64,000 nt of DNA from Anadara kagoshimensis (taxonomy: Eukaryota > Mollusca > Bivalvia > Arcoida > Arcidae). The position numbers were made by a program, and so were the translations under genes. The notes under the pieces are model-generated. The model saw only the letters and a program-made list of their open reading frames with translations. It was not told where the DNA came from and did no database searches. Below, piece after piece: positions 13,566 to 57,300 of the stretch; position 1 is the first letter of the stretch; each line of letters starts with the position of its first letter. Location: the NCBI GenBank assembly GCA_021292105.1, contig CM037873.1, positions 12,191,489 through 12,255,488 on the forward strand, written 5' to 3'.

Positions 13566-16500
13566 TTAACATAGTGTAAAAGTCTGGAAATGTTGATCAT
13601 ACCATTTTTCTTTCACCTTTGCATTTGCAAAAACCAAGATAGCTGAGATAGCCACAACTAGTGTACAAGCTGCCACCGCTGCCGCTATTATTACCGCATC
13701 ACCTAAATAAAATATTAACCATAGTCTATGTCAGCATAATGTTACAATTAAAATTAAATCAGTCAATATTGGCTTTTAAATATTAAATCCAGCGTTTATG
13801 ATATATTAATACTTTATACACTTTCTTTTTCGAGAAAAATGTTAAGCAATCCGTGTTGTTAGTTCAGTGGTTCAGTAAACTCTATAAAAAGGATTATATT
13901 ATAATCAGAATACGTGAGGCGCCTATGATTACCATTATGATGCTAATATATCTCTAAAACCAAGACACTTCTATATGTGGAAAATAAAAGGAATTAAATA
14001 TGTAATCTGCAAACTCTTAAAGGTATTTTCATTTTACACAACGTTTCAGAGTCTAATTATGGTTAAAATTGCCAGAAAAATACCAAAAATACCTACAGGA
14101 GTCAATTTTGCATACATGCTTTTTGGACATAGATGATGGTGTTTTAGCTGAATACAACTGTTAAACACAGAAAGATGGCATTGGAGGCCTAAACTTACAA
14201 TTACGAAATACAAAAATAAATCATTAAAATATTGATTACGCAGTTTCGGTTGAGAATGCAAGGATGTTTTTATCTTCGAAAAGTTTTGTTATTTTATAAC
14301 TGTGCCATATATTTAAAGGGAGATAACTCCCAGTGAATTTATGGAAATAAGATAAGATAAAATACTTTGTGCCTTTACAATAGCATATACAGTTATCATA
14401 TATAAGCCAGAAAGATAAAATTATATGACAATGACATATTCTAAATTGAATTGTTTTTGTATGATACGGATACACAGTGAAAATGGTTATATAAACTCTT
14501 GTTTATCTATGTTGGTCTTTTCTTGCAAAGTGGTGTTAATGATTTATTTGAAGTCGAGTTTTAAAAACATAAACATAAGCTCTAGAGAGATTTTGATTGA
14601 CTAAATACATTTAACACAAAATGACAGCACATGCAAACACAAAATTGACATTTACAGACATTGTAAGCAAAATCAATCATAAAACAAACTCGAAAGCATG
14701 CAGCACATAATATAAAAATAGCTGAAGCAACACAGCAGACAGCACTAAAATAGCAGAACTGGAGCAACACAATAGATAGCAGTAAAATAGCAGAACTGGA
14801 GCAACACAACAGAAAGCAGTAAAATAGCAGAACTGGAACAACACAACAGATAGCACTAAAATAGCTGAACTGGAGCAACACAACAGATAGCACTAAAATA
14901 GCTGAACTGGAGCAACACAACAGAAAGCACTAAAATAGCTGAACTGGAGCAACACAATAGATAGCACTAAAATAGCAGAACTGGAACAACACAACAGATA
15001 GCACTAAAATAGCTGAACTGGAGCAACACAACAGAAAGCACTAAAATAGCTGAACTGGAGCAACACAACAGATAGTACTAAAATAGCTGAACTGGAGCAA
15101 CACAACAGAAAGCACTAAAATAGCTGAACTGGAGCAACACAATAGATAGCACTAAAATAGCAGAACTGGAACAACACAACAGATAGCACTAAAATAGCTG
15201 AACTGGAGCAACACAACAGAAAGCACTAAAATAGCAGAACTGGAGCAACACAACAGATAGCACTAAAATAGCTGAACTGGAGCAACACAACAGAAAGCAC
15301 TAAAATAGCTGAACTGGAGCAACACAACAGAAAGAAGTAAAATAGCAGAACTGGAGCAACACAACAGAAAGCAGTAAAATAGCAGAACTGGAGCAGCTAA
15401 AACTAATGTTTTTAATGTTTTAAACAAATTACCACTTGAATCTTTCAATTCAGTTATCTCTGTCGATGTGGTAGAGATTGATGTCGTGGTGGTGACTGTG
15501 TCACTTGTTGTTCTAGTTGTGGTTGTGGTGGGTGTGGTAGTTGTGACCGTGGTAGTTGTAACAGTAGTAGTGGTAACACAAGTATTCTCCACATCAATAT
15601 TACCTAAAAATAGACATTTCATTGATCCCACAAAGCCCTCGTTATCATGGGACTAAGTTAATGACATCGCCATTACTATACACGTAGGTTTTTATTTTGC
15701 TAGGGATTTTATATAAATCAAAAACAAACATACTAATCCATGTCCAAATCACAATCCAGAAGCAGATTAAAAACTTTGGAACTGACAAGGTTAGACACGT
15801 GAACTTCCACCAGGGAAATGAGGTCGGGTATCCCGGAAGGGTAAGCACCTCCTGTTTAGCTACACCCGCCACTTGTGTAATCAAAATTGTTTGAAAGGAA
15901 CATGGAATTATGGGACGTCAAATATATACATGGCAATCCTGGACACAGAGACATCAAACTTATCAACAATACTGTGATGACGACCTTTTAACTTTTTAGG
16001 GGCCTTGATAAGCCTAGAATTGCCGTGAATATCTCTGAGTCAACAATTTATTTGGAAGCAGCTAACTAATAAAAACTGACCGCGATGTCATTATAATTTA
16101 TTGACTAGGAATTTCCTTAATTCTTGAAATCTGAGCTGAAATTGGGGTTTATTTAAAAGCAACACTGGTAACTTCCTGTGATTTATACTAACTATTCGAT
16201 CTTTTCAACACCCTTAGTTAAAAACCGCCTCAAAAATTTATGATAAATGCACAATAAAATATACTGGTAAACTCTTTGGCCTTTTTGAAGTTATTTAAAA
16301 ACTGAAAAATGATGGAAGGGTACATTATATACATATTCAGAAACTGGATAATGTTATTGTCCTGCTTTTTCCTGTTATTTATACTGCTCATAAACTTAAT
16401 TTATGATTGACCCCCCCCCCCCTAAGCAAAACTCAGTGATGAAGTCGTCACAAACTTGATCGGAAAACAACCTTTTTACAATATCCCTTGTGCTACACTG

Positions 16501-24828: not shown

Positions 24829-27800
24829 CCACAAAAATACTTTGACAAAGTAGACAAGCCTTGCAAACCACAGAAATACTTTGACAAAGTAGGCAAGCCT
24901 TGTAAACCACAGAAATACTTTGACAAAGTAGACAAGCCTTGCGAACCACAGAGATACTTTCACAAAGTAGACAGGCCTTGCAAACCACAAAAATACTTTG
25001 ACAAAGTACATGTAGACAAGCTTTGTAAACTACAGAAATACTTTGACAAAGTAGACACGCCTTGCAAACCACAGAAATACCTTCACAAAGTAGACAGGCC
25101 TTGCAAACTACAAAAATACTTTGACAAAGTACATGTAGACAAGCTTTGTAAACTACAGAAATACTTTGACAAAGTAGACAAGCCTTGCAAACCACAGAAA
25201 TACTTTGGCAAAGTAGACAAGCCTTGCAAACCACAGAAATACTTTGACAAAGTAGACAAGCCTTGCAAACCACAGAAATACTTTGACAAAGTAGACAAGC
25301 CTTGCAAACCACAGAAATACTTTGACAAAGTAGGCAAGCCTTCTAAACCACAGAAATACTTTGACAAAGTAGACAAGCCTTGCAAACCACAGAAATACTT
25401 TGACAAAGTAGGCAAGCCTTGTAAACCACAGAAATACTTTGACAAAGTACATGTAGACGTTGCGAACCACAGAAATACTTTGACAAAGTAGACAGGCCTT
25501 GCAAACCACAGAAATACTTTGACAAAGTACATGTAGACAAGCTTTGTAAACTACAGAAATACTTTGACAAAGTAGACAAGCCTTGCAAACCACAGAAATA
25601 CTTTGACAAAGTAGACAAGCCTTGCAAACAACAGAAATACTTTGACAAAGTAGACAAGCCTTGCAAACAACAGAAATACTTTGACAAAGTACATGTAGAC
25701 AAGCCTTGTGAACCACAGAAATACTTTGACAAAGTAGACAGGCCTTGCAAACCACAGAAATACTTTGACAAAGTACATGTAGACAAGCTTTGTAAACTAC
25801 AGAAATACTTTGACAAAGTAGACAAGCCTTGTAAACCACAGAAATACTTTGACAAAGTAGACAAGCCTTGCAAACAACAGAAATACTTTGACAAAGTAGA
25901 CAAGCCTTGCAAACCACAGAAATACTTTGACAAAGTAGGCAAGCCTTGTTAACCACAGAAATACTTTGACAAAGTAGATAATCCTTGTAAACCACAGAAA
26001 TACTTTGACAAAGTAGATAATCCTTGTAAACCACAGAAATACTTTGACAAAGTAGACAAGCCTTGCAAACCACAGAAATACTTTGACAAAGTAGACAAGT
26101 CTTGCAAACCACAGAAATACTTTGACAAAGTAGACAAGCCTTGCAAACCACAGAAATACTTTGACAAACTAGACAAGCCTTGCAAACCACTAAAATACTT
26201 TGACAAACTTGACAAGCCTTGCAAACCACAGAAATACTTTGACAAAGTAGACAAGCCTTGTAAACCACAGAAATACTTTGACAAAGTACATGTAGACGTT
26301 GCGAACCACAGAAATACTTTGACAAAGTAGACAGGCCTTGCAAACCACAGAAATACTTTGACAAAGTACATGTAGACAAGCTTTGTAAACTACAGAAATA
26401 CTTTGACAAAGTAGACAAGCCTTGCAAACCACAGAAATACTTTGACAAAGTAGACAAGCCTTGCAAACAACAGAAATACTTTGACAAAGTAGACAAGCCT
26501 TGCAAACAACAGAAATACTTTGACAAAGTACATGTAGACAAGCCTTGTGAACCACAGAAATACTTTGACAAAGTAGACAGGCCTTGCAAACCACAGAAAT
26601 ACTTTGACAAAGTACATGTAGACAAGCTTTGTAAACTACAGAAATACTTTGACAAAGTAGACAAGCCTTGTAAACCACAGAAATACTTTGACAAAGTAGA
26701 CAAGCCTTGCAAACAACAGAAATACTTTGACAAAGTAGACAAGCCTTGCAAACCACAGAAATACTTTGACAAAGTAGGCAAGCCTTGTTAACCACAGAAA
26801 TACTTTGACAAAGTAGATAATCCTTGTAAACCACAGAAATACTTTGACAAAGTAGATAATCCTTGTAAACCACAGAAATACTTTGACAAAGTAGACAAGC
26901 CTTGCAAACCACAGAAATACTTTGACAAAGTAGACAAGTCTTGCAAACCACAGAAATACTTTGACAAAGTAGACAAGCCTTGCAAACCACAGAAATACTT
27001 TGACAAACTAGACAAGCCTTGCAAACCACTAAAATACTTTGACAAACTTGACAAGCCTTGCAAACCACAGAAATACTTTGACAAAGTAGACAAGCCTTGT
27101 AAACCACAGAAATACTTTGACAAAGTACATGTAGACGTTGCGAACCACAGAAATACTTTGACAAAGTAGACAGGCCTTGCAAACCACAGAAATACTTTGA
27201 CAAAGTACATGTAGACACGCTTTGTAAACTACAGAAATACTTTGACAAAGTAGACAAGCCTTGCAAACCACAGAAATACTTTGACAAAGTAGACAAGCCT
27301 TGCAAACAACAGAAATACTTTGACAAAGTAGACAAGCCTTGCAAACAACAGAAATACTTTGACAAAGTACATGTAGACAAGCCTTGTGAACCACAGAAAT
27401 ACTTTGACAAAGTAGACAGGCCTTGCAAACCACAGAAATACTTTGACAAAGTACATGTAGACAAGCTTTGTAAACTACAGAAATACTTTGACAAAGTAGA
27501 CAAGCCTTGTAAACCACAGAAATACTTTGACAAAGTAGACAAGCCTTGCAAACAACAGAAATACTTTGACAAAGTAGACAAGCCTTGCAAACCACAGAAA
27601 GCTTGGACAAAGTAGACAAGCCTTGCAAACCACAGAAATACTTTGACAAAGTAGACAAGTCTTGCAAACCACAGAAATACTTTGACAAAGTAGACAAGCC
27701 TTGCAAACCACAGAAATACTTTGACAAAGTAGGCAAGCCTTGTAAACCACAGAAATACTTTGCCAAAGTACATGTAGACAAGCCTTGCGAACCACAGAAA

Positions 27801-29720
27801 TACTTTGACAAAGTAGACAAGCCTTGCAAACCACAGAAATACTTTGACAAACTAGACAAGCCTTGCAAACCACTAAAATACTTTGACAAACTTGACAAGC
27901 CTTGCAAACCACAGAAATACTTTGACAAAGTAGACAAGCCTTGTAAACCACAGAAATACTTTGACAAAGTACATGTAGACGTTGCGAACCACAGAAATAC
28001 TTTGACAAAGTAGACAGGCCTTGCAAACCACAGAAATACTTTGACAAAGTACATGTAGACACGCTTTGTAAACTACAGAAATACTTTGACAAAGTAGACA
28101 AGCCTTGCAAACCACAGAAATACTTTGACAAGTAGACAAGCCTTGCAAACAACAGAAATACTTTGACAAAGTAGACAAGCCTTGCAAAACAACAGAAATA
28201 CTTTGACAAAGTACATGTAGACAAGCCTTGCGAACCACAGAAATACTTTGACAAAGTAGACAGGCCTTGCAAACCACAGAAATACTTTGACAAAGTACAT
28301 GTAGACAAGCTTTGTAAACTACAGAAATACTTTGACAAAGTAGACAAGCCTTGTAAACCACAGAAATACTTTGACAAAGTAGACAAGCCTTGCAAACCAC
28401 AGAAAGCTTGGACAAAGTAGACAAGCCTTGCAAACCACAGAAATACTTTGACAAAGTAGACAAGTCTTGCAAACCACAGAAATACTTTGACAAAGTAGAC
28501 AAGCCTTGCAAACCACAGAAATACTTTGACAAAGTAGGCAAGCCTTGTAAACCACAGAAATACTTTGACAAAGTACATGTAGACAAGCCTTGCGAACCAC
28601 AGAAATACTTTGACAAAGTAGACAAGCCTTGCAAACCACAGAAATACTTTGACAAACTAGACAAGCCTTGCAAACCACTAAAATACTTTGACAAACTTGA
28701 CAAGCCTTGCAAACCACAGAAATACTTTGACAAAGTAGACAAGCCTTGTAAACCACAGAAATACTTTGACAAAGTACATGTAGACGTTGCGAACCACAGA
28801 AATACTTTGACAAAGTAGACAGGCCTTGCAACCACAGAAATACTTTGACAAAGTACATGTAGACACGCTTTGTAAACTACAGAAATACTTTGACAAAGTA
28901 GACAAGCCTTGCAAACCACAGAAATACTTTGACAAAGTAGACAAGCCTTGCAAACAACAGAAATACTTTGACAAAGTAGACAAGCCTTGCAAACAACAGA
29001 AATACTTTGACAAAGTACATGTAGACAAGCCTTGCGAACCACAGAAATACTTTGACAAAGTAGACAGGCCTTGCAAACCACAGAAATACTTTGACAAAGT
29101 ACATGTAGACAAGCTTTGTAAACTACAGAAATACTTTGACAAAGTAGACAAGCCTTGTAAACCACAGAAATACTTTGACAAAGTAGACAAGCCTTGCAAA
29201 CAACAGAAATACTTTGACAAAGTAGACAAGCCTTGCAAACCACAGAAAGCTTGGACAAAGTAGACAAGCCTTGCAAACCACAGAAATACTTGACAAAGTA
29301 GACAAGTCTTGCAAACCACAGAAATACTTTGACAAAGTAGACAAGCCTTGCAAACCACAGAAATACTTTGACAAAGTAGGCAAGCCTTGTAAACCACAGA
29401 AATACTTTGACAAAGTAGATAATCCTTGTAAACCACAGAAATACTTTGACAAAGTAGATAATCCTTGTAAACCACAGAAATACTTTGACAAAGTAGACAA
29501 GCCTTGCAAACCACAGAAATACTTTGACAAAGTAGACAAGTCTTGCAAACCACAGAAATACTTTGACAAAGTAGACAAGCCTTGCAAACCACAGAAATAC
29601 TTTGACAAACTAGACAAGCCTTGCAAACCACTAAAATACTTTGACAAACTTGACAAGCCTTGCAAACCACAGAAATACTTTGACAAAGTAGACAAGCCTT
29701 GTAAACCACAGAAATGCTTG
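24829..29720. repeat. 4.9-kb satellite of 39-bp (and 45-bp) units, roughly 120 copies, with 839-bp higher-order period
   Basis: The basic unit is CCACAGAAATACTTTGACAA plus AGTAGACAAGCCTTGCAAA (39 bp). A 45-bp variant carries an extra ACATGT before GTAGAC, and rarer variants read CGTTGCGAACCAC, GATAATCCTTG or AAAGCTTGGAC. Blocks of units recur in the same order: 25551-25778, 26390-26617 and 27229-27456 match at exactly 839-bp spacing, then less regularly (844 and 804 bp). Reading frames of up to 542 codons arise because the minus strand is nearly stop-free in all three frames. They drift between frames, so I do not call a gene. Edges are at GATTAGCC (left) and a decayed unit, CAGAAATGCTTGGGCAAG (right). 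Confidence 0.95.
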
Positions 29721-36026: not shown

Positions 36027-39000
36027 TCAGGATTCTCCACTTGGTTGAGATGTTGAGCTTGTAGTCAGTGTCACTGAACTTTGTGTTGTATCTGTAGCAG
36101 TCATATGTGGATCTGACAATACCATGGTCCCAGAAGTCTGGGTCCCAGATATAGTTGGCACTGATATTAATTTATTAACAGCAGTTTGTAAAACATTAAC
36201 ATTAGGCGCTGCTTGAATAGCTTGTCCTGCAGCAGCGCCAACCGTTGCTAACTTCATTCCCGGGGGAGGTGTAATTATCCTTGCATATACAGGTTGTTTG
36301 GTTTTTTGTGAGCCTTTAGTTTTTGGTATATTTTGTATAACTTGTCCTGTTGACATCATAGACGCTGTAGTTTGTTGTAAAGGAGGTTGAGATATCAAAA
36401 TTGTAGCTTGACCAGGTTTTAACCCGGCCTGCTGCCCAAGTACAGTCCTAACTACTTGAATATTTTGTCCTGGTTTACCAGCCCCACCACTAACAAGAAG
36501 TTGTGTTCCACTGGCTAAACTGAAACAGAAAATTAAATGAGGTAAAATAAAATCACTTAATTACTAAATAAATTCAATACCACTTTCAAGTCATGATCAG
36601 ATTGTTGTAGACTTGGTACAAATTAGTGAAAAGACATCTTTAAACAATATGTTTGTAAATAGCAGATACATGTAGTGTTCTATTTATATGTTTAAAGTTT
36701 AAGAATTGTAGCTGTTTTTTTTTCAGACTTAAAACATTTACAAATTAAAATGATATTATTGATACTGTAAATATTAGTAAAATTCAGCCAAAAACACACA
36801 GAAATGCTCCTTGACAACATTTTCGTACAGGTAATTTAAAATGTCATCTAAATCGGTTTGTTGAAAGAAAGGAAATACACATGGACTAATTCTAAAAGCT
36901 GATCACATCTGGATTATTAGAAATATTTAATAAGCTCACTTTCAACACTTACAAATAAAACGACACCCAGTTTTGGAAAAAGGAAAATGTATTAAGTTGT
37001 CTGAAAGGTATGATGCAAAAAAGTTATATAAAGCCTTAAACGTACAGCCCTAAACTTATTAAACCTGTTTGAAGTTATTCTAACTCCATATGAGGCACTG
37101 AAGTGATAACAGAAAGTTGAAATAAGTAGTATACTAAAATAAATAGTACCTACTTTGAGTAACTGTAGTATTACCAGCAGACATTAAATCTGCTGTTTGT
37201 TGAACGATAAACTGAGCAGGAAGTAGCCCTGCTTGACCAGCAGTGACCACTTTAGCATGCGATGAAGCAGGTGTCCCTCCTGGACGTAGAGTTATACTTC
37301 CAGGAGCTAGCTGTGTTACAACGATCCCTCCCTGAGAAGGTGTTACAACTTTCTGCTGATTGGCAGTTTGTTGTGATACCCCTGCAGATGGCGCTGTTGT
37401 TGTCATGATAACTTGGGTTTGATGAGCGGTTCTGGCAATGGTAGTTGTACCTGTTGTCAATGGAGATGGACTTCCTGTTCTGACTGACATTTCTGCGATA
37501 GCTGAAAAATATCATTTATACAAAAATTACAACCAATTACCCTTTTTTACGAGTATGTGTATTTCACATGGATGCCACTTTTCATGGAAACCCGAGTTGA
37601 GTTTGAGTAATGGTGTTTAACCTCCCGGTCAAGAATATTTCACTTCTTATATTGAGACGTCGCCAGGTATAGGCGAAAATGCAGAAATTTTGCCTGTGTG
37701 TTGCACTTATGGCATTATACAGCAGGGTTCTTTAGCGTGCCAAGCCAACCATGACAAGGGACCTTGTTTATTTAAGTTCCCATCCGAAAGAACCATGATT
37801 TTCATTTTGTAATGTCGAGTGCTTGGCTTCGAGTGCTACCCACTTTCAAGTCTTTGGTCAGGGCCAGTCGGGGTTTGAACCCACAACCTACCACTTACAG
37901 AACGAGCATACTACCAACTGAGCTACCACAGTGGTCATGGAAACCTTATATTACGAGACTATATTCTCAGGGGTTAAAGATTCATTTATGTCAGTTGAGA
38001 AGAGTAAAACCTGTTGTAGTGACCACCTTTACATAATGACTTTCTTGGTGCAAAGAACACTTATTTGATCCATTTGCTCAACATTTTAATTGAATTAAAT
38101 CTCTTATTAAAAGAGAATCTGCCTATAAACTCCAAAATTATAACATTAATTGAATGTTTTACTCATATGCAAAATTTTTATTAAAGTTTTTCATTCCTTC
38201 TTTTAATGTTACTGGCATTTTCTGTTTTATACACTTTCTAAAACTATTACAATAAAGTCGTTTGTTGAAATGAACTGAAAATTTTCTTCTTTATTTCCAG
38301 TCTATATACCAGTATACCCCAAAATAAATACTGCCCCATGGAAAATTCCAGGTGCTCTAAATACACAGATGACAGAGTGAACTTAAAGGTCTTACCCCCA
38401 CAAGGACGGTTTTTTCCCTTAGTTTTATACAAAATGATTTTAAAAGGTACTTTATAAAGGTACATGTATTTCTTACCAATAAATGTTAATGTACCTGAAG
38501 TAGGTGTTCTGGGCTGTGTTAGATTAATAGCCCCCAGTATTATCGGGTTGTAGTTTATACCAACATGCCCAATATAAAGTATTTCTTATTAACAGATTTT
38601 AATGTACCTGAAGTAGGTGTTCTGGGCTGTGTTAGGTTAATAGCCCCCAGTATTATCTGGTTGTAGTTTTATACCAACATGCCCAATATAAAGTATTTCT
38701 TATGAACAGATTTTAATGTACCTGAAGTAGGTGTTCAGGGCTGTGTGCGGTTCATAGCCCCCAGTATCATCTGGTTGTAGTTTCATACCAACATGCCCAA
38801 TATAAAGTATTTCTTATGAACAGATTTTAATGTACCTGAAGTAGGTGTTCTGGGCTGTGTTAGGTTAATAGCCCCCAGTATCATCTGGTTGTAGTTTTTA
38901 CCAACATGCCCAATATAAAGTATTTCTTATGAACAGATTTTAATGTACCTGAAGTAGGTGTTCTGGGTTGTGTAAGGTTAATAGCCCCCAGTATCATCTG

Positions 39001-42000
39001 GTTGTAGTTTATACCAACATGCCCAATATAAAGTATTTCTTATGAACAGATTTTAATGTACCTGAAGTAGGCGTTCTGGGTTGTGTAAGGTTAATAGCCC
39101 CCAGTATTATCTGGTTGTAGTTTATACCAACATGCCCAATATAAAGTATTTCTTATTAACAGATTTTAATGTACTTGAAGTAGGCATTCTGGGTTGTGTA
39201 AGGTTAATAGCCCCCAGTATTATCTGGTTGTAGTTTTATACCAACATGCCCAATATAAAGTATTTCTTATTAACAGATCTTAATGTACCTTAAGTAGGTG
39301 TTCTGGGCTGTGTTAGGTTAATAGCCCCCAGTATTATCGGGTTGTAGTTTATACCAACATGCCCAATATAAAGTATTTCTTATGAACAGATTTTAATGTA
39401 CCTGAAGTAGGTGTTCTGGGTTGTGTAAGGTTAATAGCCCCCAGTATTATCTGGTTGTAGTTTTATACCAACATGCCCAATATAAAGTATTTCTTATTAA
39501 CAGATTTTAATGTACCTTAAGTAGGTGTTCTGGGCTGTGTTAGGTTAATAGCCCCCAGTATTATCTGGTTGTAGTTTATACCAACATGCCCAATATAAAG
39601 TATTTCTTATGAACAGATTTTAATGTACCTGAAGTAGGCGTTCTGGGCTGTGTTAGGTTAATAGCCCCCAGTATCATCTGGTTGTAGTTTGATACCAACA
39701 TGCCCAATATAAAGTATTTCTTATGAACAGATTTTAATGTACCTGAAGTAGGTGTTCTGGGCTGTGTTAGATTAATAGCCCCCAGTATCATCCGGTTGTA
39801 GTTTATACCAACATGCCCAATATAAAGTATTTCTTATGAACAGATTTTAATGTACCTGAAGTAGGTGTTCAGGGCTGTGTGCGGTTCATAGCCCCCAGTA
39901 TCATCTGGTTGTAGTTTCATACCAACATGCCCAATATAAAGTATTTCTTATGAACAGATTTTAATGTACCTGAAGTAGGTGTTCTGGGCTGTGTTAGGTT
40001 AATAGCCCCCAGTATCATCTGGTTGTAGTTTTATACCAACATGCCCAATATAAAGTATTTCTTATGAACAGATTTTAATGTACCTGAAGTAGGTGTTCTG
40101 GGTTGTGTAAGGTTAATAGCCCCCAGTATCATCTGGTTGTAGTTTATACCAACATGCCCAATATAAAGTATTTCTTATGAACAGATTTTAATGTACCTGA
40201 AGTAGGTGTTCTGGGTTGTGTAAGGTTAATAGCCCCCAGTATTATCTGGTTGTAGTTTTATACCAACATGCCCAATATAAAGTATTTCTTATTAACAGAT
40301 TTTAATGTACCTTAAGTAGGTGTTCTGGGCTGTGTTAGGTTAATAGCCCCCAGTATTATCTGGTTGTAGTTTATACCAACATGCCCAATATAAAGTATTT
40401 CTTATGAACAGATTTTAATGTACCTGAAGTAGGCGTTCTGGGCTGTGTTAGGTTAATAGCCCCCAGTATCATCTGGTTGTAGTTTGATACCAACATGCCC
40501 AATATAAAGTATTTCTTATGAACAGATTTTAATGTACCTGAAGTAGGTGTTCTGGGCTGTGTTAGATTAATAGCCCCCAGTATCATCCGGTTGTAGTTTA
40601 TACCAACATGCCCAATATAAAGTATTTCTTATGAACAGATTTTAATGTACCTGAAGTAGGTGTTCAGGGCTGTGTGCGGTTCATAGCCCCCAGTATCATC
40701 TGGTTGTAGTTTCATACCAACATGCCCAATATAAAGTATTTCTTATGAACAGATTTTAATGTACCTGAAGTAGGTGTTCTGGGCTGTGTTAGGTTAATAG
40801 CCCCCAGTATCATCTGGTTGTAGTTTTATACCAACATGCCCAATATAAAGTATTTCTTATGAACAGATTTTAATGTACCTGAAGTAGGTGTTCTGGGTTG
40901 TGTAAGGTTAATAGCCCCCAGTATCATCTGGTTGTAGTTTATACCAACATGCCCAATATAAAGTATTTCTTATGAACAGATTTTAATGTACCTGAAGTAG
41001 GTGTTCAGGGCTGTGTAAGGTTCATAGCCCCCAGTATCATCTGGTTGTAGTTTCATACCAACATGCCCAATATAAAGTATTTCTTATGAACAGATTTTAA
41101 TGTACCTGAAGTAGGTGTTCTGGGCTGTGTTAGGTTAATAGCCCCCAGTATCATCTGGTTGTAGTTTTATACCAACATGCCCAATATAAAGTATTTCTTA
41201 TGAACAGATTTTAATGTACCTGAAGTAGGTGTTCTGGGTTGTGTAAGGTTAATAGCCCCCAGTATCATCTGGTTGTAGTTTATACCAACATGCCCAATAT
41301 AAAGTATTTCTTATGAACAGATTTTAATGTACCTGAAGTAGGCGTTCTGGGTTGTGTAAGGTTAATAGCCCCCAGTATTATCTGGTTGTAGTTTATACCA
41401 ACATGCCCAATATAAAGTATTTCTTTGTAGTTTATACCAACATGCCCAATATAAAGTATTTCTTATTAACAGATTTTAATGTACTTGAAGTAGGCATTCT
41501 GGGTTGTGTAAGGTTAATAGCCCCCAGTATTATCTGGTTGTAGTTTTATACCAACATGCCCAATATAAAGTATTTCTTATTAACAGATCTTAATGTACCT
41601 TAAGTAGGTGTTCTGGGCTGTGTTAGGTTAATAGCCCCCAGTATTATCGAGTTGTAGTTTATACCAACATGCCCAATATAAAGTATTTCTTATGAACAGA
41701 TTTTAATGTACCTGAAGTAGGTGTTCTGGGTTGTGTAAGGTTAATAGCCCCCAGTATTATCTGGTTGTAGTTTTATACCAACATGCCCAATATAAAGTAT
41801 TTCTTATTAACAGATTTTAATGTACCTGAAGTAGGTGTTCTGGGCTGTGTTAGGTTAATAGCCCCCAGTATTATCTGGTTGTAGTTTATACCAACATGCC
41901 CAATATAAAGTATTTCTTATTAACAGATTTTAATGTACCTTAAGTAGGTGTTCTGGGCTGTGTTAGGTTAATAGCCCCCAGTATCATCTGGTTGTAGTTT

Positions 42001-45000
42001 TATACCAACATGCCCAATATAAAGTATTTCTTATTAACAGATTTTAATGTACCTTAAGTAGGTGTTCTGGGCTGTGTTAGGTTAATAGCCCCCAGTATTA
42101 TCTGGTTGTAGTTTATACCAACATGCCCAATATAAAGTATTTCTTATGAACAGATTTTAATGTACCTGAAGTAGGCGTTCTGGGCTGTGTTAGGTTAATA
42201 GCCCCCAGTATCATCTGGTTGTAGTTTGATACCAACATGCCCAATATAAAGTATTTCTTATGAACAGATTTTAATGTACCTGAAGTAGGTGTTCTGGGCT
42301 GTGTTAGATTAATAGCCCCCAGTATCATCCGGTTGTAGTTTATACCAACATGCCCAATATAAAGTATTTCTTATGAACAGATTTTAATGTACCTGAAGTA
42401 GGTGTTCTGGGCTGTGTTAAGTTCATGACCCCTGCAGCTCCACCTGCTTGTGGTATAATACTTATTGTTGGAAGTGCTCCTTGTTGGGTCTGAATCAGTC
42501 CCATCTGTTGTTGACCTTTACCAGCAATCTGTACTAACTGACCTCTAGCGGTAGTAGCTAATGGTTTACCAGTCAGATGTACAGGGTTAGCAGTAGCTGA
42601 TGTAGTGTTACCTACAATATACAATTATTGGATATACATTATTAAAGATTAATTCTTGATATATATATATACAAAAATAAAACCTGATTTTGGCAGCCTA
42701 AATGCAAAAAAAGGGCAATAATGTTAGTAATACGATAAAATATTTAACTTGACCCACCATTTATCTTGAAAAACATACATGCAAATATGAATAAGATCCT
42801 ATTATTTACCGGTAAACAGATAAATTCAAAAAGGGCAATAACTCTTGAAATAAATATAGACAAACAACACAGACCTGTCCACTTGACCTTTCATTAAGAT
42901 TATTCATTTAGGAGGGTCTACCCAAACATGGGTAGTGGTAAGATTTGCAATTAATACATAAAGAATACACAAACTTATACCTTTAGGTTATTTCCCTTTC
43001 TGTCTTAACCACTCAATCATTAACTCTACATATGGATATAAGTATTTAAAATGGGTGTTTCCCATTATGAGACAAAATAACACTAACATGTGTTCCCTAT
43101 ACATAAATGTACTGATCTGTAATAAATATTTAAAGGCCAGAGGACAGGTCAATGTTGTTTGCTTATAGTAGATAGTAGCAAATGTCAATCATGAGCTTTG
43201 TTTTGTCATGAAAAGCATATGTGCAAATATATGTATGAAATCCATTGAGTCTTTGAAAAGCCAAATTTAATGTGGAGAGATAAAAAATGTCATAACATTA
43301 TACACCAGCATTTTGGTGTTTAAATTTTTTTCTTAAAAAAGATAAACATTCCAATATGGTTACCTTTTATGTGTACAGTTGAGCTCATCTTGGTTTGACT
43401 TTGAGCTTGCATCTGTGCTCTTTGAGCGGCTAATAAATTACTAACAGAGATCTGACTCCCAGCAGGCATTTGTTGAACAAGCCTTGCCACAAGAGGTGTA
43501 GTAACTCCTGTAGTTGAAGACACATTCTGGATAGTGTTGGTAGAGATGACTGGACTCTGAGGTTGAGAGGTTATGACCTTTGATATCACAGGTGAAGCAG
43601 ACGATGGGGTTCCAGCAGATGACTGAGGATTAGATGTGGATATAACAGAACTTTGACGTTGAAAGAGCTCGGGTCGAATTGCTGCTGCTAAATTTTGTGA
43701 CAAAGTTTGTGATATGTTTGGATTTGATCCAGCAACAGTCATTCTTATACTTTGTAATAATCCTAAAGGCAGTGTTTTAGCAATTCCAGTGGCAGTAGTT
43801 TCTTGTCGGGGGAGAGAAGATGAAACAGCAGGTGATGATGGATTAGGTGAATGAACTCCTATAAAAGAAAAATAAAATGTAGAACATTTACGATTTAACA
43901 ATCAGAAACGTTTATCTACAACATTATATTTGAAATTTATGACTTCATGTAACACTGTAAAATGTATGAATATATGTACATACAGTGCATTAAGTGAAAA
44001 AACATGCAGTTACCAAGACCTGTAAAGGAGAGACTAGGGCTTAACTCAGATTTCAGTTAAGATGGCTGCATTCAAATTTTAAAATGCTTAAAACATGGAG
44101 TTTTTTCCTGAAACTTGTGATTTTGAAACATCGCCTTTTTAAACTTGTATAAAACATCACCTGTCTTTATATAAAGTCACTTTTAATTTTCCTCTAAAGC
44201 CATTTTATTCTTGATCAAGCCTTCATAGAAGATTCAGATAGCTAGGACAGAACAGTTGGAGCAGAACTACAAGAACTGAAACTGGCATGGTGAGAGGCAG
44301 AGGCTAAAGCCAAGAATACAGCTGAGTGGCAAAGTCGTGTGTTGACTTTATGCTTCAGGGGGAACGAAGAGGATAGGTAGGTAGAAGCCTCCATACAGAT
44401 ACAATGTATCTCTGTTTAACTCAGCCAAGGATCAACCTACCTGTATTTCGGTTCTACATTGCTCCTGACACACTTAAGGTCCCTTACATGTTATTACATA
44501 TATGTCCTTTGATTCGAACATGGATGGGTTTGTTTTAGATAAACTTAAATAAAAGTTCTAACTGTGTGTTTTAAGAGTAAAAATGCTTTTAAGATTTAAC
44601 TATCCAAGCTTTGTAGTAAAATCTATGTTTCCAAAATGGCCACTGGCTAATGACTTCTGGGAAATTCTTTCAAAATGTAACCTATTTTGGCAACTTTGTG
44701 AAAAATACTTTACAAAAGCCTAAATTTTTCACAATTTTTTTAATTGAATCTTGGCTACTAATAATTTTGATTTTTTAGAAACCTACCGTATATCATGGTT
44801 ATGAGCAGGGTTAATGAATTGCCACCTACATGATGATTATAAGAAGGTTGATGAATTGACACCTACGTGACTTTGTAGATCATGATTATAAGAAAGGCTG
44901 ATAAATTAACACCTACCTGACTTAGTAGGAGTTCCTGGTAAGCTGTTCCCGGTTTGTTGCTGCTGCTGCTGTTGTTGTTGTAAGTTCTGTAAGTGTTGTT

Positions 45001-45337: not shown

Positions 45338-48300
45338 CTGAAAGAAAACAAGTTAAATAACATATAAAAAATAATTAGTTATAACAAATGAAAAATTTTC
45401 AAATGCAGTCAAACCTGCCTTAAAGGCTACCTCTATATAGGGTCACCTGCTTTTAAAGGACAGTAAAATTTATCCCAACTACTTTTCATTCAGGTTCTTT
45501 TGGGTGGCCTAAATAGACAGGTTTGACTTTATGTCAAAATTTAAACTTCTGGAAAACTTTTTTTTAATGAATTAAGTACAATGTAATATACAGTTGACTC
45601 TCGTTATCTCGAACTCGACGGGGAAATGCAAAAAGTTCGACTTATCCGGTGTTCGAGATAACCAATGTTAAAAACGGCAACAAAAGGGAAGTAACTCGTA
45701 CACGCCTACCGGAAGTCACTTCCGGTTTTATCTTGTCAAACTGTATGTCATCCGCATTGACATTTTAAGATGCAATGATAAATGATTTGATTATGCATTT
45801 TGTTTTATAAGATTTTCTTTAATTACTCAAATCTGTCAATAACTGATTGCGCTATTGTTATTAGCCGACAAATAGTGGAGTCCGCTTTGGTCTCCATACC
45901 AGTTTCGCTTTGTGTACTTTAATCACCCCAAGCTTCCGGTTGTATTGAGTAATGTTCACATCACACGCTTTCGGCAGCCATGCATGTTCAGCTTGGCAGT
46001 AATTATAACACCTGCTAATCTCCTTAATGGTTTAATTGCTTATGCAAGGGATAATAATTCAGTGCTTAAGGAAATTGGGAGGTCAGGGTAATGTTGTAAT
46101 TTTAAAATCAACACGAGGCCGACAGTCAAATATTTTATTTATGTCGGAATGTGTTTTTTCTACCAAAAATCTGTAGGCGTCGACAAATTTGATTTTCCAA
46201 ATTTTTTTGTTCGAGTTAACAAATTAAATTTCCTAAATTTTTTGTTCCGAGTTAACAATTTAATTTTCCTAAATGTTTTGTTCGAGTTAACAAATTAAAT
46301 TTTCCTAAATCTTTTGTTCGATTAGCGAGTGTAATTTTCCTAGGATTTTCATTCAAGGGGACGAAAATATTGTTCGACATATCCGATAATTCGAGATATC
46401 CGAGTTTGAGATAACCGGAGTGATTTTGGTTTAATAAAGAACAACTCTGTTCGGACTTTTTAAAAAAGTTCGAGATATCCAAGTTCGAGATAACGAGATT
46501 CAACTGTACATGTAAATTAAAACAAACTCTTTACCTAGAATCTGTCACTTTACCTATAGCTGGTGGTGTCTTGATATAAGTGAAATATTCTTGACTGGGA
46601 AGTAAAACCCCATTCAATCAATCAATCATAAAGTAATGAACTTTAAACTTTCTAAGTAATTTTATGTTACTTACTGTTTTGGGGGTTTTTGGTTTCTGTA
46701 AGGATTTTTTAGCCCTCTGAGCCGCACCATGTGCTTGATGAATTCTTTCTGCAATTTAATAAGGCACACAATTGATAATCAAATATACATGTAACTAGTG
46801 ATTATGTATCAAAATAGTTCTACACTATTGTCCCCTTTACCCCAGCCTCCAGGATCAGTGCTATTGCACACAAGGGTATCAGCAACTACCATAAAATACA
46901 TCAAGTGTTTTTAAAAAGGGATGAAGTAACAGACAGAGAGATTGTAACATTCAACTGTAAGTAACTCTCTAGGATAGAAAAATATCATCTAAGAGGTTGT
47001 AGATTTCTTTTTGAATTCCAATGTTTGACTTCTTATATGATTTAAATTTATATCTTTGTGCCATGCTAGTAAAATCTAACTTTGTTACTGTAAACTGAGA
47101 AATTTTAGCAGTAGTTTTAATTTGGCACTTTTAAGTCTGATCTATTTGTTTGTAACACAATGAAAATATCTAAATTTTGGAGGTCCAGCTGTCATTATCC
47201 TGTAAGATGATGTCCTCTCCCCAACATGATAATAACATGTGATTGTCCCTCAATTATAAAGCAACATCAATGAAGAATGAACCAAAGAGAGAAGATCCAG
47301 TGACACTTTGCATGCACAGCTTATGTAAAATAGTAATATTTCTCAAGACTATCCCTATATTTTATTTTTTTTTTTACTTATCTCTAGTTTAAATAAAACT
47401 CTCACCAAACTCTTCTTCAGTCCGACTTCTATGTAAATATATCCATAATTTTCTGTTGACATCATATTTAACACAAGGATCTTTTTCTGAATGAAGACGA
47501 TCTAAAGCTCCACTTACAACCACATTTATCTGTAATATAACAAACATTAAAATTTCACATTAAAAAACAATTGTCTTCTACTTTTATACACTTTTTAAGC
47601 AGAAATTTTTCAGTGTATTAACATATTATAGAATAAAAATAAAGAACCTTGTTTTCACAGTCATCGATCAACTATGAAAATAAATCCACCCTAAAATTCA
47701 ATATGTATACCAAATATTGACACCATCATAGGACCACAACAGTCTATACTAGAGATATTGCTTATACCAGTCAAAATTTTTACATATACTGCAGCAGTTT
47801 ATATCAGAAATGCATTAATCTTCAGTGGAATCCATGACAAAGAATTAAACATGAAATACAAGATACTGTAAAACATCAATAATGCCAAGTACAGGAACAT
47901 TGATTGTAGGCATAATGTTATCCAAGAGTTAGAGTTACAAATTTAACCTACCTACTCACCACCAAACCCAAATGTTTAAAATATGTACCAATCCATTGTC
48001 ACATAAATTACTCTCTGGATCTCTGGTCGCATTTTGAGATGAAGTACATGACAGACTTGTTAACATGTTTGTGGTATTCTATTTTGATAAAAACAAACCT
48101 GTGCATCAGATACACCTGGAGCTAAGAACTGTGAATCTTTTAACAGCTCACATATATCACCTCTAGTACCCTCACCATTAGGTAACCTAGCTGCTGCATC
48201 TCTCACTAGTAATTAAAACAAATATATAATAAATTACAACAATTACTTGTACTTAAATATCTTCCATCTTCACTTTGATAGTAAGTAAAATTAAACATGG

Positions 48301-54300: not shown

Positions 54301-57300
54301 AAATAGTCAAGACTATTTCACTTATATTTAGGCAGTCAGTTCTGGGACTTAGACAGAAACCAGAGTATCCACAGAAAATCTTCAAACTTTGGCAAGTCAA
54401 ATGACAAACTTTCTTACACTAGAAACTGCCATATTTTTAATTCAAACCCAAAACGTTAGAAGTGGTGAGATCCCTAAGCCCCTTTATCAATGATAGCATA
54501 CAAATTACATGTATATAAGTAACAAGTTCTATAATAAAATTTTGAGTGGAATGCAGAAGTTTAATGACCCTGTCATGATTCTTTCACTTATATCCCGGCG
54601 ATCAGTTCATGGATAGAGGAAACTGGAGTGACTGGTGAAAATCACAGACCTTTCTCAAACAAGAATCCGTCCAGGCGATCAGTTCAAGGATAGAGGAAAC
54701 TGGAGTGCCTGGTGAAAATCACAGACCTTTCTCAAACAAGAATTTGTCCAGGCGATCAGTTCAAGGATAGAGGATACTGGAGTGCCTGGTGAAAATCACA
54801 GACCTTTCTCAAACAAGAATCTGTCCAGGCAATCAGTTCAAGGATAGAGGAAACTGGAGTGCCTGGTGAAAATCACAGACCTTTCTCAAACAAGAATCTG
54901 TCCAGGCGATCAGTTCATGGATAGAGGAAACTGGAGTGCCTGGTGAAAATCACAGACCTTTCTCAAACAAGAATCTGTCCAGGCAATCAGTTCAAGGATA
55001 GAGGAAACTGGAGTGCCTGGTGAAAATCACAGACCTTTCTCAAACAAGAATCCGTCCAGGCGATCAGTTCAAGGATAGAGGAAACTGGAGTGCCTGGTGA
55101 AAATCACAGACCTTTCTCAAACAAGAATCCGTCCAGGCGATCAGTTTATGGATGGAGGAAACTGGAGTGCCTGGTGAAAATCACAGACCTTTCTCAAACA
55201 AGAATCTGTCCAGGCGATCAGTTCAAGGATAGAGGAAACTGGAGTGCCTGGTGAAAATGAGACCTTTCTCAAACAAGAATCTGTCTAGGCGATCAGTTCA
55301 TGGATGGAGGAAACTGGAGTGCCTGGTGAAAATCACAGACCTTTCTCAAACAAGAATCCGTCCAGGCGATCAGTTCATGGATGGAGGAAACTGGAGTGCC
55401 TGGTGAAAATGAGACCTTTCTCAAACAAGAATCTGTCCAGGCGATCAGTTCATGGATAGAGGAAACTGGAGTGCCTGGTGAAAATCACAGACCTTTCTCA
55501 AACAAGAATCCGTCCAGGCGATCAGTTCATGGATGGAGGAAACTGGAGTGCCTGGTGAAAATGAGACCTTTCTCAAACAAGAATCTGTCCAGGCGATCAG
55601 TTCATGGATAGAGGAAACTGGAGTGCCTGGTGAAAATGAGACCTTTCTCAAACAAGAATCCGTCCAGGCGATCAGTTCATGGATGGAGGAAACTGGAGTG
55701 ACTGGTGAAAATCACAGACCTTTCTCAAACAAGAATCCGTCCAGGCAATCAGTTCATGGATAGAGGAAACTGGAGTGCCTGGTGAAAATCACAGACCTTT
55801 CTCAAACAAGAATTTGTCCAGGCGATCAGTTCAAGGATAGAGGAAACTGGAGTGCCTGGTGAAAATCACTGACCTTTCTCAAACAAGAATCTGTCTCAAT
55901 TGGGATTTAAACTTAGGTGTGAGAGATAATAAATTTATGAGAACAACTAACAAATACATGTTCATGTAGAAAATGTAGATGCGTGTATACTATTAACAAC
56001 AAACCTTTACAGTTGTGGCTCGACCGTCACTAAAACTGCATAATAAATCTCTGACAAGGCTGAAGAAATTATCATGCTGACCAAATGAAATCTTTGGTGG
56101 ACAAGTTCTACTTAAAAGAAACAATATTTAACATTTAGTAAATAATACAACATATTTCAATTAAGAAATGACATTCTGCTCATGGTTTTTCAAGGGGTAA
56201 TGCAAGATAAAGTGGCGCGTGCCAAATTTGGCACACATCACACTATTTTGCATTACCCCTTGAAATACCATGAGCAGTAAATGTCATTTCTTATATTTAC
56301 AATTCTTTCTTTTAATATCTATTTTGTACCTTGGCGCTATTTTTTCCATATCTGTGTGATATATGGTTTTTAGCCATGCGAGATCGGCATATCTCCGATG
56401 ATCTTGTGACCCCCTGTGTAGGACATGACGTAATATTGCGGGAAAATTGATACACATCAAGGGTCATAACCCCTATTGTCTTTCAACAGGAATTACAATA
56501 CAATTGCTTCTGTATGTTTCATCAAAGACAGGTACAGCCATATTGTAAATATTCTCACATCATCATTTCAAATTTTAGTGCCATTAATGGTGACATCTAA
56601 TGTATATCTAAGCAGATTAAATAATATCTGCTGCTATAAATAATAATTATATGTAACAAAGATATAATGGAGTTAGCCAGTATATCAGGTGATCAAATTG
56701 TGCAAAATGATGATATGGAAAACCTTCAATTTCCCAGTAAATAAACACATTTCATACGAAAACATAAATTTTTATCATTTCATATCCAGTGGAAATAATA
56801 ATTCAACACAGAAGTTATCAGGTATCACTTGGTATGCTGGTTATATCCATTGCATAAAATGCCAATTGTCTGTGTAGGTGAATCAAATTTAGGTCCATAT
56901 ATCTAAGTAAAACATGGATATCGAGTCCATTTCTACATAAAAAATAACTGGCCTTACTATCTTTGAAGAAATTCCCTGAAATAAGATGTCTTGCCTTGTT
57001 ACTATAATTATCATAAGACTGGACTCATACATTTTACTGAAGCTTATTTGTTACATCAAGGATCCAGTGAAAACCCACATTAAGTTCCATTGTGTGAATA
57101 AGTTGTTGGTATCTCAGCAATGTGCATGGCTAGGTTAATGTTTAGATCCCGATTGAGATCAATTTTTGAATTCTTGACAGAATCATACCTAAGACGAAGA
57201 ATGGATTTAAGATTCTATTTAACTTACTCTGGCAGTGGAAAGTCTGGAACTTCATCCTCCTGCTTCATAAAATTATCTTGAAGTCCAGATGAGTTTTCTG

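What the first reader, a model, noticed from the sequence alone, without database searches (positions are those of the whole stretch)
38488..42611. A satellite made from an exon's own 3' end and 5' splice site
About 34 units of 113 bp follow NFRKB exon 42393-42611 directly. Each carries a near copy of the exon's last ~45 bp, the CTACTTCAG|GTACATT donor and ~60 bp of intron. The intron therefore offers roughly 35 near-identical 5' splice sites in a row, most preceded by the exon's own sequence. Using any donor but the first would read into a stop (...GTA TAA) about 17 codons on, so the array could act as a donor decoy or trigger decay of mis-spliced mRNA. Alternatively it is a neutral by-product of unequal exchange.
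Basis: partly seen in the sequence, partly recalled or inferred. Interest (0 to 1): 0.75.

Follow-up and report, generated by a model that had tools for sequence, protein, structure and literature searches.

The report
Exon-edge satellite with copied splice donors
In one intron of an animal gene (NFRKB), the end of the neighbouring exon with its splice-start signal has been copied about 34 times in a row; it looks like a locally grown repeat array, probably tolerated rather than useful, but a good natural test of how cells choose among many equal splice sites.

Summary
On the minus strand of an NFRKB gene, exon 42611-42393 runs straight into a tandem array: 35 matches to CTACTT[C/A]A[G/A]|GTACATTA, one at the exon's own end and 34 after it, spaced 113 or 114 bp (one of 152). 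Homology to the exon covers its last ~41 bp (27 of 28, then 9 of 13), not a clean 45. The unit was found nowhere else in the 1.1-Gb genome by the search used. The exon-derived half has coding-like composition and the rest is intron-like, switching at the donor, so the array most likely grew out of the exon-intron junction. A 422-bp block that includes the exon's last 15 bp and donor is exactly repeated twice inside the array, so the exon edge takes part in recent exchange. 33 of 35 donors, the real one included, score alike; donors beyond the first all lie past one stop codon. No RNA was available: decoy or decay function is untested, and nothing in the sequence requires it. Most likely a neutral, recently churned junction satellite with the first donor used. 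A human precedent exists (IFI6 repeat donors). Ordinary origin, useful natural experiment.

The parts
42393..42611 (-). NFRKB exon (219 nt, phase 1 at both ends) whose last ~41 bp are copied in the array
   Evidence: AG before and GT after; phases fit the neighbouring exons 43858-43364 and 37501-37150; last 51 bp coding-like
42391..42392 (-). the exon's own 5' splice site CAG|GTACAT
   Evidence: sharp composition change at this point; no RNA
38466..42392 (-). tandem array, 113/114-bp units, 34 copied donors after the exon's own
41386..41464 (-). 39-bp duplication inside unit 8 (the 152-bp spacing)
41986..42407 (-). 422-bp block from the exon's last 15 bp into unit 3, exactly repeated at 40665-40244 and 39870-39449
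39340..41006 (-). 872-bp exact repeat at an offset of 795 bp (41006-40135 and 40211-39340, overlapping)
38466..38494 (-). last, diverged unit: intronic side 24 of 29 alike, then the array ends
42442..42443 (-). alternative in-frame donor candidate GCAG|GTGGAG inside the exon, phase 1
   Evidence: sequence; score 0.93 against 1.48 for the donor at 42392
37150..37501 (-). next NFRKB exon, acceptor side of the intron

Best explanation
A short tandem duplication across the 3' end of this NFRKB exon and the start of its intron founded an array that grew and was homogenised by unequal exchange, partly in blocks of several units. Its left edge is the working exon, held by selection on the protein; its right edge decayed. 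Most likely the first donor is the one used, because it pairs with the exon's acceptor 219 nt upstream and is transcribed first; the 34 copies are mostly silent, and slips to them would yield an mRNA with an early stop. Shown: structure, no second locus found, coding-like exon half, exchange block reaching into the exon. Inferred: direction of origin, order of events, donor choice, decay.
For: The 51 bp before the donor score 11.8 bits coding over intron (order-1 model; 1 of 1827 intron windows scores as high) and unit 1's exon half 7.2 bits, while the intronic part of the exon copy scores negative in all three frames. Mean GC is 51% in the exon-derived 41 bp (34 copies) and 27% in the 61 bp after the donor. 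The unit was found only at this locus in 1.115 Gb, one candidate region, while the nearby 77-bp array gave 173 first-look candidates, 40 scored, on many contigs. Exact 422-bp repeat reaching 15 bp into the exon; 872-bp exact repeat. Ordered unit types. Both array edges are diverged. Tandem arrays in general are common here: 12 of period 30 or more and 5 or more copies in a 200-kb sample, about 60 per Mb.
Against: No orthologue was available, so exon-to-array direction rests on composition and gene structure. The exon's 13 bp at -41..-29 differ from the consensus at 4 places, which a very young array seeded as it stands would not show. The exon halves of units vary more than the intron halves (13 of 53 columns against 4 of 61, Fisher p 0.009), which plain neutrality does not explain, though the columns are not independent events. 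The intron windows were scored by a model trained on those same introns, which lowers the null.
Confidence: 0.7

Rival explanations
1. Donor decoy or poison-exon device: copied donors bind U1 snRNP and are used at a rate that depends on copy number, so that part of the NFRKB transcripts gain an early stop and are degraded; array length tunes gene output.
For: 33 of 35 donors keep CAG or AAG before GTACAT, scoring 1.48 or 1.31; apart from one TTG|GTAAGA they are the only GTs of 142 in the array at 1.3 or above. Copied donors checked (1, 2, 5, 34) all lead to the same TAA, 60 nt or more before the junction. Human IFI6 is reported to use repeat-unit donors (passage in PMC4526556).
Against: No RNA. 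No excess conservation of donors over the rest of the intronic half: the whole half is nearly invariant. The donor is middling (7th of the 11 donors I placed in this gene, scores). Exon definition should favour the first donor (recalled).
Confidence: 0.1
2. The exon really ends at 42444 with the donor CAG|GTGGAG; the array, first copy included, is purely intronic and CAG|GTACAT is no splice site.
For: That site is in the same phase and scores 0.93 against 1.48; homology to the array begins just inside it.
Against: The 51 bp in between are coding-like: 11.8 bits, matched by 1 of 1827 intron windows and at or above 85% of 704 exon windows of the same gene.
Confidence: 0.07
3. The array came first, as an intronic satellite, and its edge unit was captured by the exon (exonisation).
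For: Exon and array share sequence; direction is not polarised by an outgroup.
Against: The exon half of unit 1 has coding-like composition unlike intron DNA, with the switch at AG|GT; the unit was found nowhere else.
Confidence: 0.08
4. Recursive splicing: each CAG|GT serves as acceptor and regenerated donor, so that the array is removed in 113-nt steps.
For: 33 of 35 sites have juxtaposed AG|GT, and 4 of 5 units looked at have a YTNAY branch-like word about 24 nt before the AG.
Against: The acceptor scores -9.3 to -10.0 in the five units checked; 0.63-0.69 of 647 intronic AGs score as high or higher; it has little pyrimidine tract and other AGs lie in between.
Confidence: 0.02

Closest known systems
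Human IFI6 (6-16) minisatellite providing multiple splice donor sites (Turri et al. 1995; seen only as a reference title and a one-sentence account in PMC4526556, and as a reference title in PMC2572611)
   Same: Tandem repeat at an exon end that offers repeat units as splice donors
   Different: There the use of two downstream repeat units as donors is reported. Here the unit is 113 bp with exon and intron parts, later donors bring a stop, and use is unknown. The short 12-bp unit of IFI6 is recalled, from no call.
Intron gain by tandem genomic duplication (potato RdRp case, PMC4974935; title and start of abstract seen in a listing)
   Same: Tandem duplication inside a gene; the role of AGGT segments is recalled
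   Different: Here the duplicated piece already spans a donor, the AG acceptors look weak, and no new intron is evident
Satellite-like arrays carried by Helentron elements in the oyster Crassostrea gigas (PMC7492417; title and start of abstract seen)
   Same: Short tandem arrays scattered in a genome; that the host here is a bivalve is my guess, tested by no call
   Different: Those are dispersed by mobile elements; this unit was found at one locus only

Membership tests
IFI6-type junction minisatellite with multiple donors | Tandem units begin at an exon end and each carries a GT donor in exon-like context | tested here: met
   35 sites (pattern requires GT; regular spacing leaves no unit out): 27 CAG, 6 AAG, 2 CAA before GTACAT
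IFI6-type junction minisatellite with multiple donors | More than one repeat donor is used in mRNA | not testable with these tools
   no RNA data held
Dispersed or transposon-borne satellite | Same unit at other loci | tested here: not met
   only this locus in G000; the 77-bp array as contrast gave many; the tool warns that its counts are lower bounds and that very common words are skipped
Recursive splice (ratchet) sites | Pyrimidine tract and acceptor joined to a donor, AG|GT | tested here: not met
   AG|GT present in 33 of 35, but the acceptor scores -9.3 to -10.0 in five units checked, no better than most of 647 intronic AGs
Functional donor decoy | Donors conserved beyond their surroundings, or used | tested here: inconclusive
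   the intronic half is nearly invariant as a whole (4 of 61 columns vary), not the donor specially; -1 and -3 vary; use not testable
NFRKB gene | NFRKB winged-helix domains encoded by exons on this strand | tested here: met
   PF14465 6.9e-11, PF25793 3.6e-16; 3u21 2e-10; PF25793 in three places of the window

The most novel reading that the evidence does not exclude
A copy-number rheostat: U1 binds many of the 34 copied donors, a fraction of NFRKB transcripts splice from them into an NMD-prone form, and recurrent unequal exchange at the exon edge makes array length, hence NFRKB output, vary among individuals while also rewriting the real donor by exchange.
Probability: 0.07. Interest if true: 0.75.

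Novelty: new member of a known kind. Interest (0 to 1): 0.35.

Why it matters
It offers 33 near-equal donors, preceded by near copies of the exon's last 28 bp, at regular distance from one acceptor in a native gene: a natural competition assay for exon definition, first-transcribed and intron-proximal rules. It also shows that a real splice donor can lie inside the exchange tract of a tandem array.

Tried and rejected
Dispersed-satellite origin: rejected by the genome search. Retrocopies or second exon copies: the exon search found only this locus, so no spliced retrocopy could confirm the junction. Exact 30-base unit word: 0 in viral contigs, 0 in genome contigs; neither is a collection of animal genomes and near records may be left out, so this is weak. 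Recursive splicing: weak acceptor. Donor at 42443: disfavoured. Papers: eight searches answered; among the titles and abstract starts listed I saw no account of this array. The lists were cut (20 of 23; 12 of 20; 10 of 36; 10 of 1,342), so absence from print is not shown. Turri 1995 and PMC343271 are not held.

Rows dropped and limits: two donor rows with wrong offsets (E57, E61; E61 corrected, E57 only); two of 13 acceptors (offset by one, not ending in AG). The intron set contains NFRKB exon pieces found only later and another tandem array, which can only add high-scoring windows; on the other side, the intron windows were scored with a model trained on them. The donor-score frequencies are recalled human-like values, from no call; the 11 donors are those I placed by eye, not all of the gene's. 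One search ended in an error after printing the rows used; its missing part was run.

Full report
What is there. On the minus strand, an NFRKB exon (42611-42393) is followed without a break by a tandem array to about 38466. A search with CTACTT.A[AG]GTACATTA in this region found 35 sites; the first is the exon's own donor at 42392, the last lies at 38494. Spacings are 113 (16 times), 114 (17 times) and 152 (once). The pattern requires GT, but the regular spacing leaves no unit uncounted. Units 1-33 without unit 8 are 95.7% alike on average. The gene is NFRKB: PF14465 and PF25793 hit two of its exons, PDB 3u21 is the one relevant solved relative, and the three genome hits to PF25793 lie in this window.

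How much exon. Against the unit consensus the exon matches 27 of 28 bases before the donor and 9 of 13 in the next stretch (8 to 10 of 13 across 34 units), with no clear homology beyond. So the copied exon piece is about 41 bp. The chance of 9 or more of 13 is about 0.002 under a simple binomial model. The intronic side of the exon copy equals the consensus but for a 1-bp indel that also varies among units.

Is the exon end right? A second in-frame donor, CAG|GTGGAG, lies 51 bp upstream. A codon-position model trained on 2,622 coding and 13,213 intronic bases of this gene gave the 51 bp in between 11.8 bits for coding (order 1); 1 of 1827 intron windows reaches that, and none reaches the 15.9 bits of the order-2 model. 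The intron windows were scored by the model trained on them, which lowers the null; they also contain some exon pieces found later, which raises it. The intronic piece after the donor scores negative in all three frames. I therefore keep the exon end at 42393, without RNA proof.

Origin. Unit 1's exon half is still coding-like at 7.2 bits. Mean GC is 51% in the exon-derived 41 bp and 27% in the 61 bp after the donor. The unit was found only at this locus in the 1.115-Gb assembly, while a neighbouring 77-bp array gave 173 first-look candidates and matches on many contigs. This points to a duplication at the junction rather than an imported satellite.

Turnover. Unit types run in repeated order. 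The longest exact repeat is 872 bp at a 795-bp offset. A 422-bp block starting 15 bp inside the exon is exactly repeated at 40665-40244 and 39870-39449. At the mean divergence between units some 18 differences would be expected over 422 bp (inference), so copying here is recent and includes the exon edge and its donor. Both outer edges are diverged, as unequal exchange predicts (recalled).

Splicing. 27 donors are CAG, 6 AAG and 2 CAA before GTACAT, the exon's own included. With recalled human-like frequencies CAG|GTACAT scores 1.48, AAG 1.31, CAA -1.86; the exon's donor ranks 7th of the 11 donors I placed in the gene, and 6.1% of 691 intronic GTs score as high. Within the array, 34 of 142 GTs score at least 1.3: 27 CAG, 6 AAG and one TTG|GTAAGA, in the last unit. 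Use of copied donor 1, 2, 5 or 34 gives the same TAA, 60 nt or more before the junction; the other copied donors lie beyond that TAA too. Decay of such mRNA is inference.

Against function. The intronic half as a whole hardly varies (4 of 61 columns), the exon half more (13 of 53; p 0.009, columns not independent); the donor stands out neither way. Why the exon halves vary more is unexplained.

How surprising? A sample of 20 stretches of 10 kb held 12 arrays of period 30 or more and 5 or more copies, about 60 per Mb. With tens of thousands of arrays and, by assumption, some 200,000 donors in 1.1 Gb, many array seeds should span a donor by chance. The kind is known from human IFI6, two of whose downstream repeat units are reported to serve as splice donors (one sentence and a reference title in PMC4526556).

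Verdict. Observation confirmed; origin from the exon end likely; regulatory role untested and not needed. Interest is mainly as a ready-made competition experiment among equal donors.

Noticed in passing
14722-15395: A 37-bp array (18 copies) runs straight on from an open frame (minus-strand ORF 15652-15263) next to a VWA-domain exon (17237-16569), so that array units may encode a hydrophobic C-terminus; possibly a second array here with an edge in coding sequence. The genome search for it did not complete.
   Followed up: partly
24829-29719: 39-bp array of about 122 copies, open over long stretches in several frames on both strands, the unit being a multiple of three.
   Followed up: no
54593-55895: 77-bp array (17 copies) in another NFRKB intron; its unit resembles a repeat dispersed on many contigs.
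   Followed up: partly
38466-42392: Exon-derived halves of the units vary at more columns (13 of 53) than intron-derived halves (4 of 61); unexplained.
   Followed up: partly
37600-37930: tRNA-like stretch with A- and B-box-like words in the same intron, probably a SINE (label recalled; not called by ARAGORN or Rfam).
   Followed up: no
45590-46510: Element with inverted ends (ACAGTTGAATCTCGTTATCTCGAAC ... GTTCGAGATAACGAGAGTCAACTGT), probably a small DNA transposon, in an NFRKB intron (read by eye).
   Followed up: no
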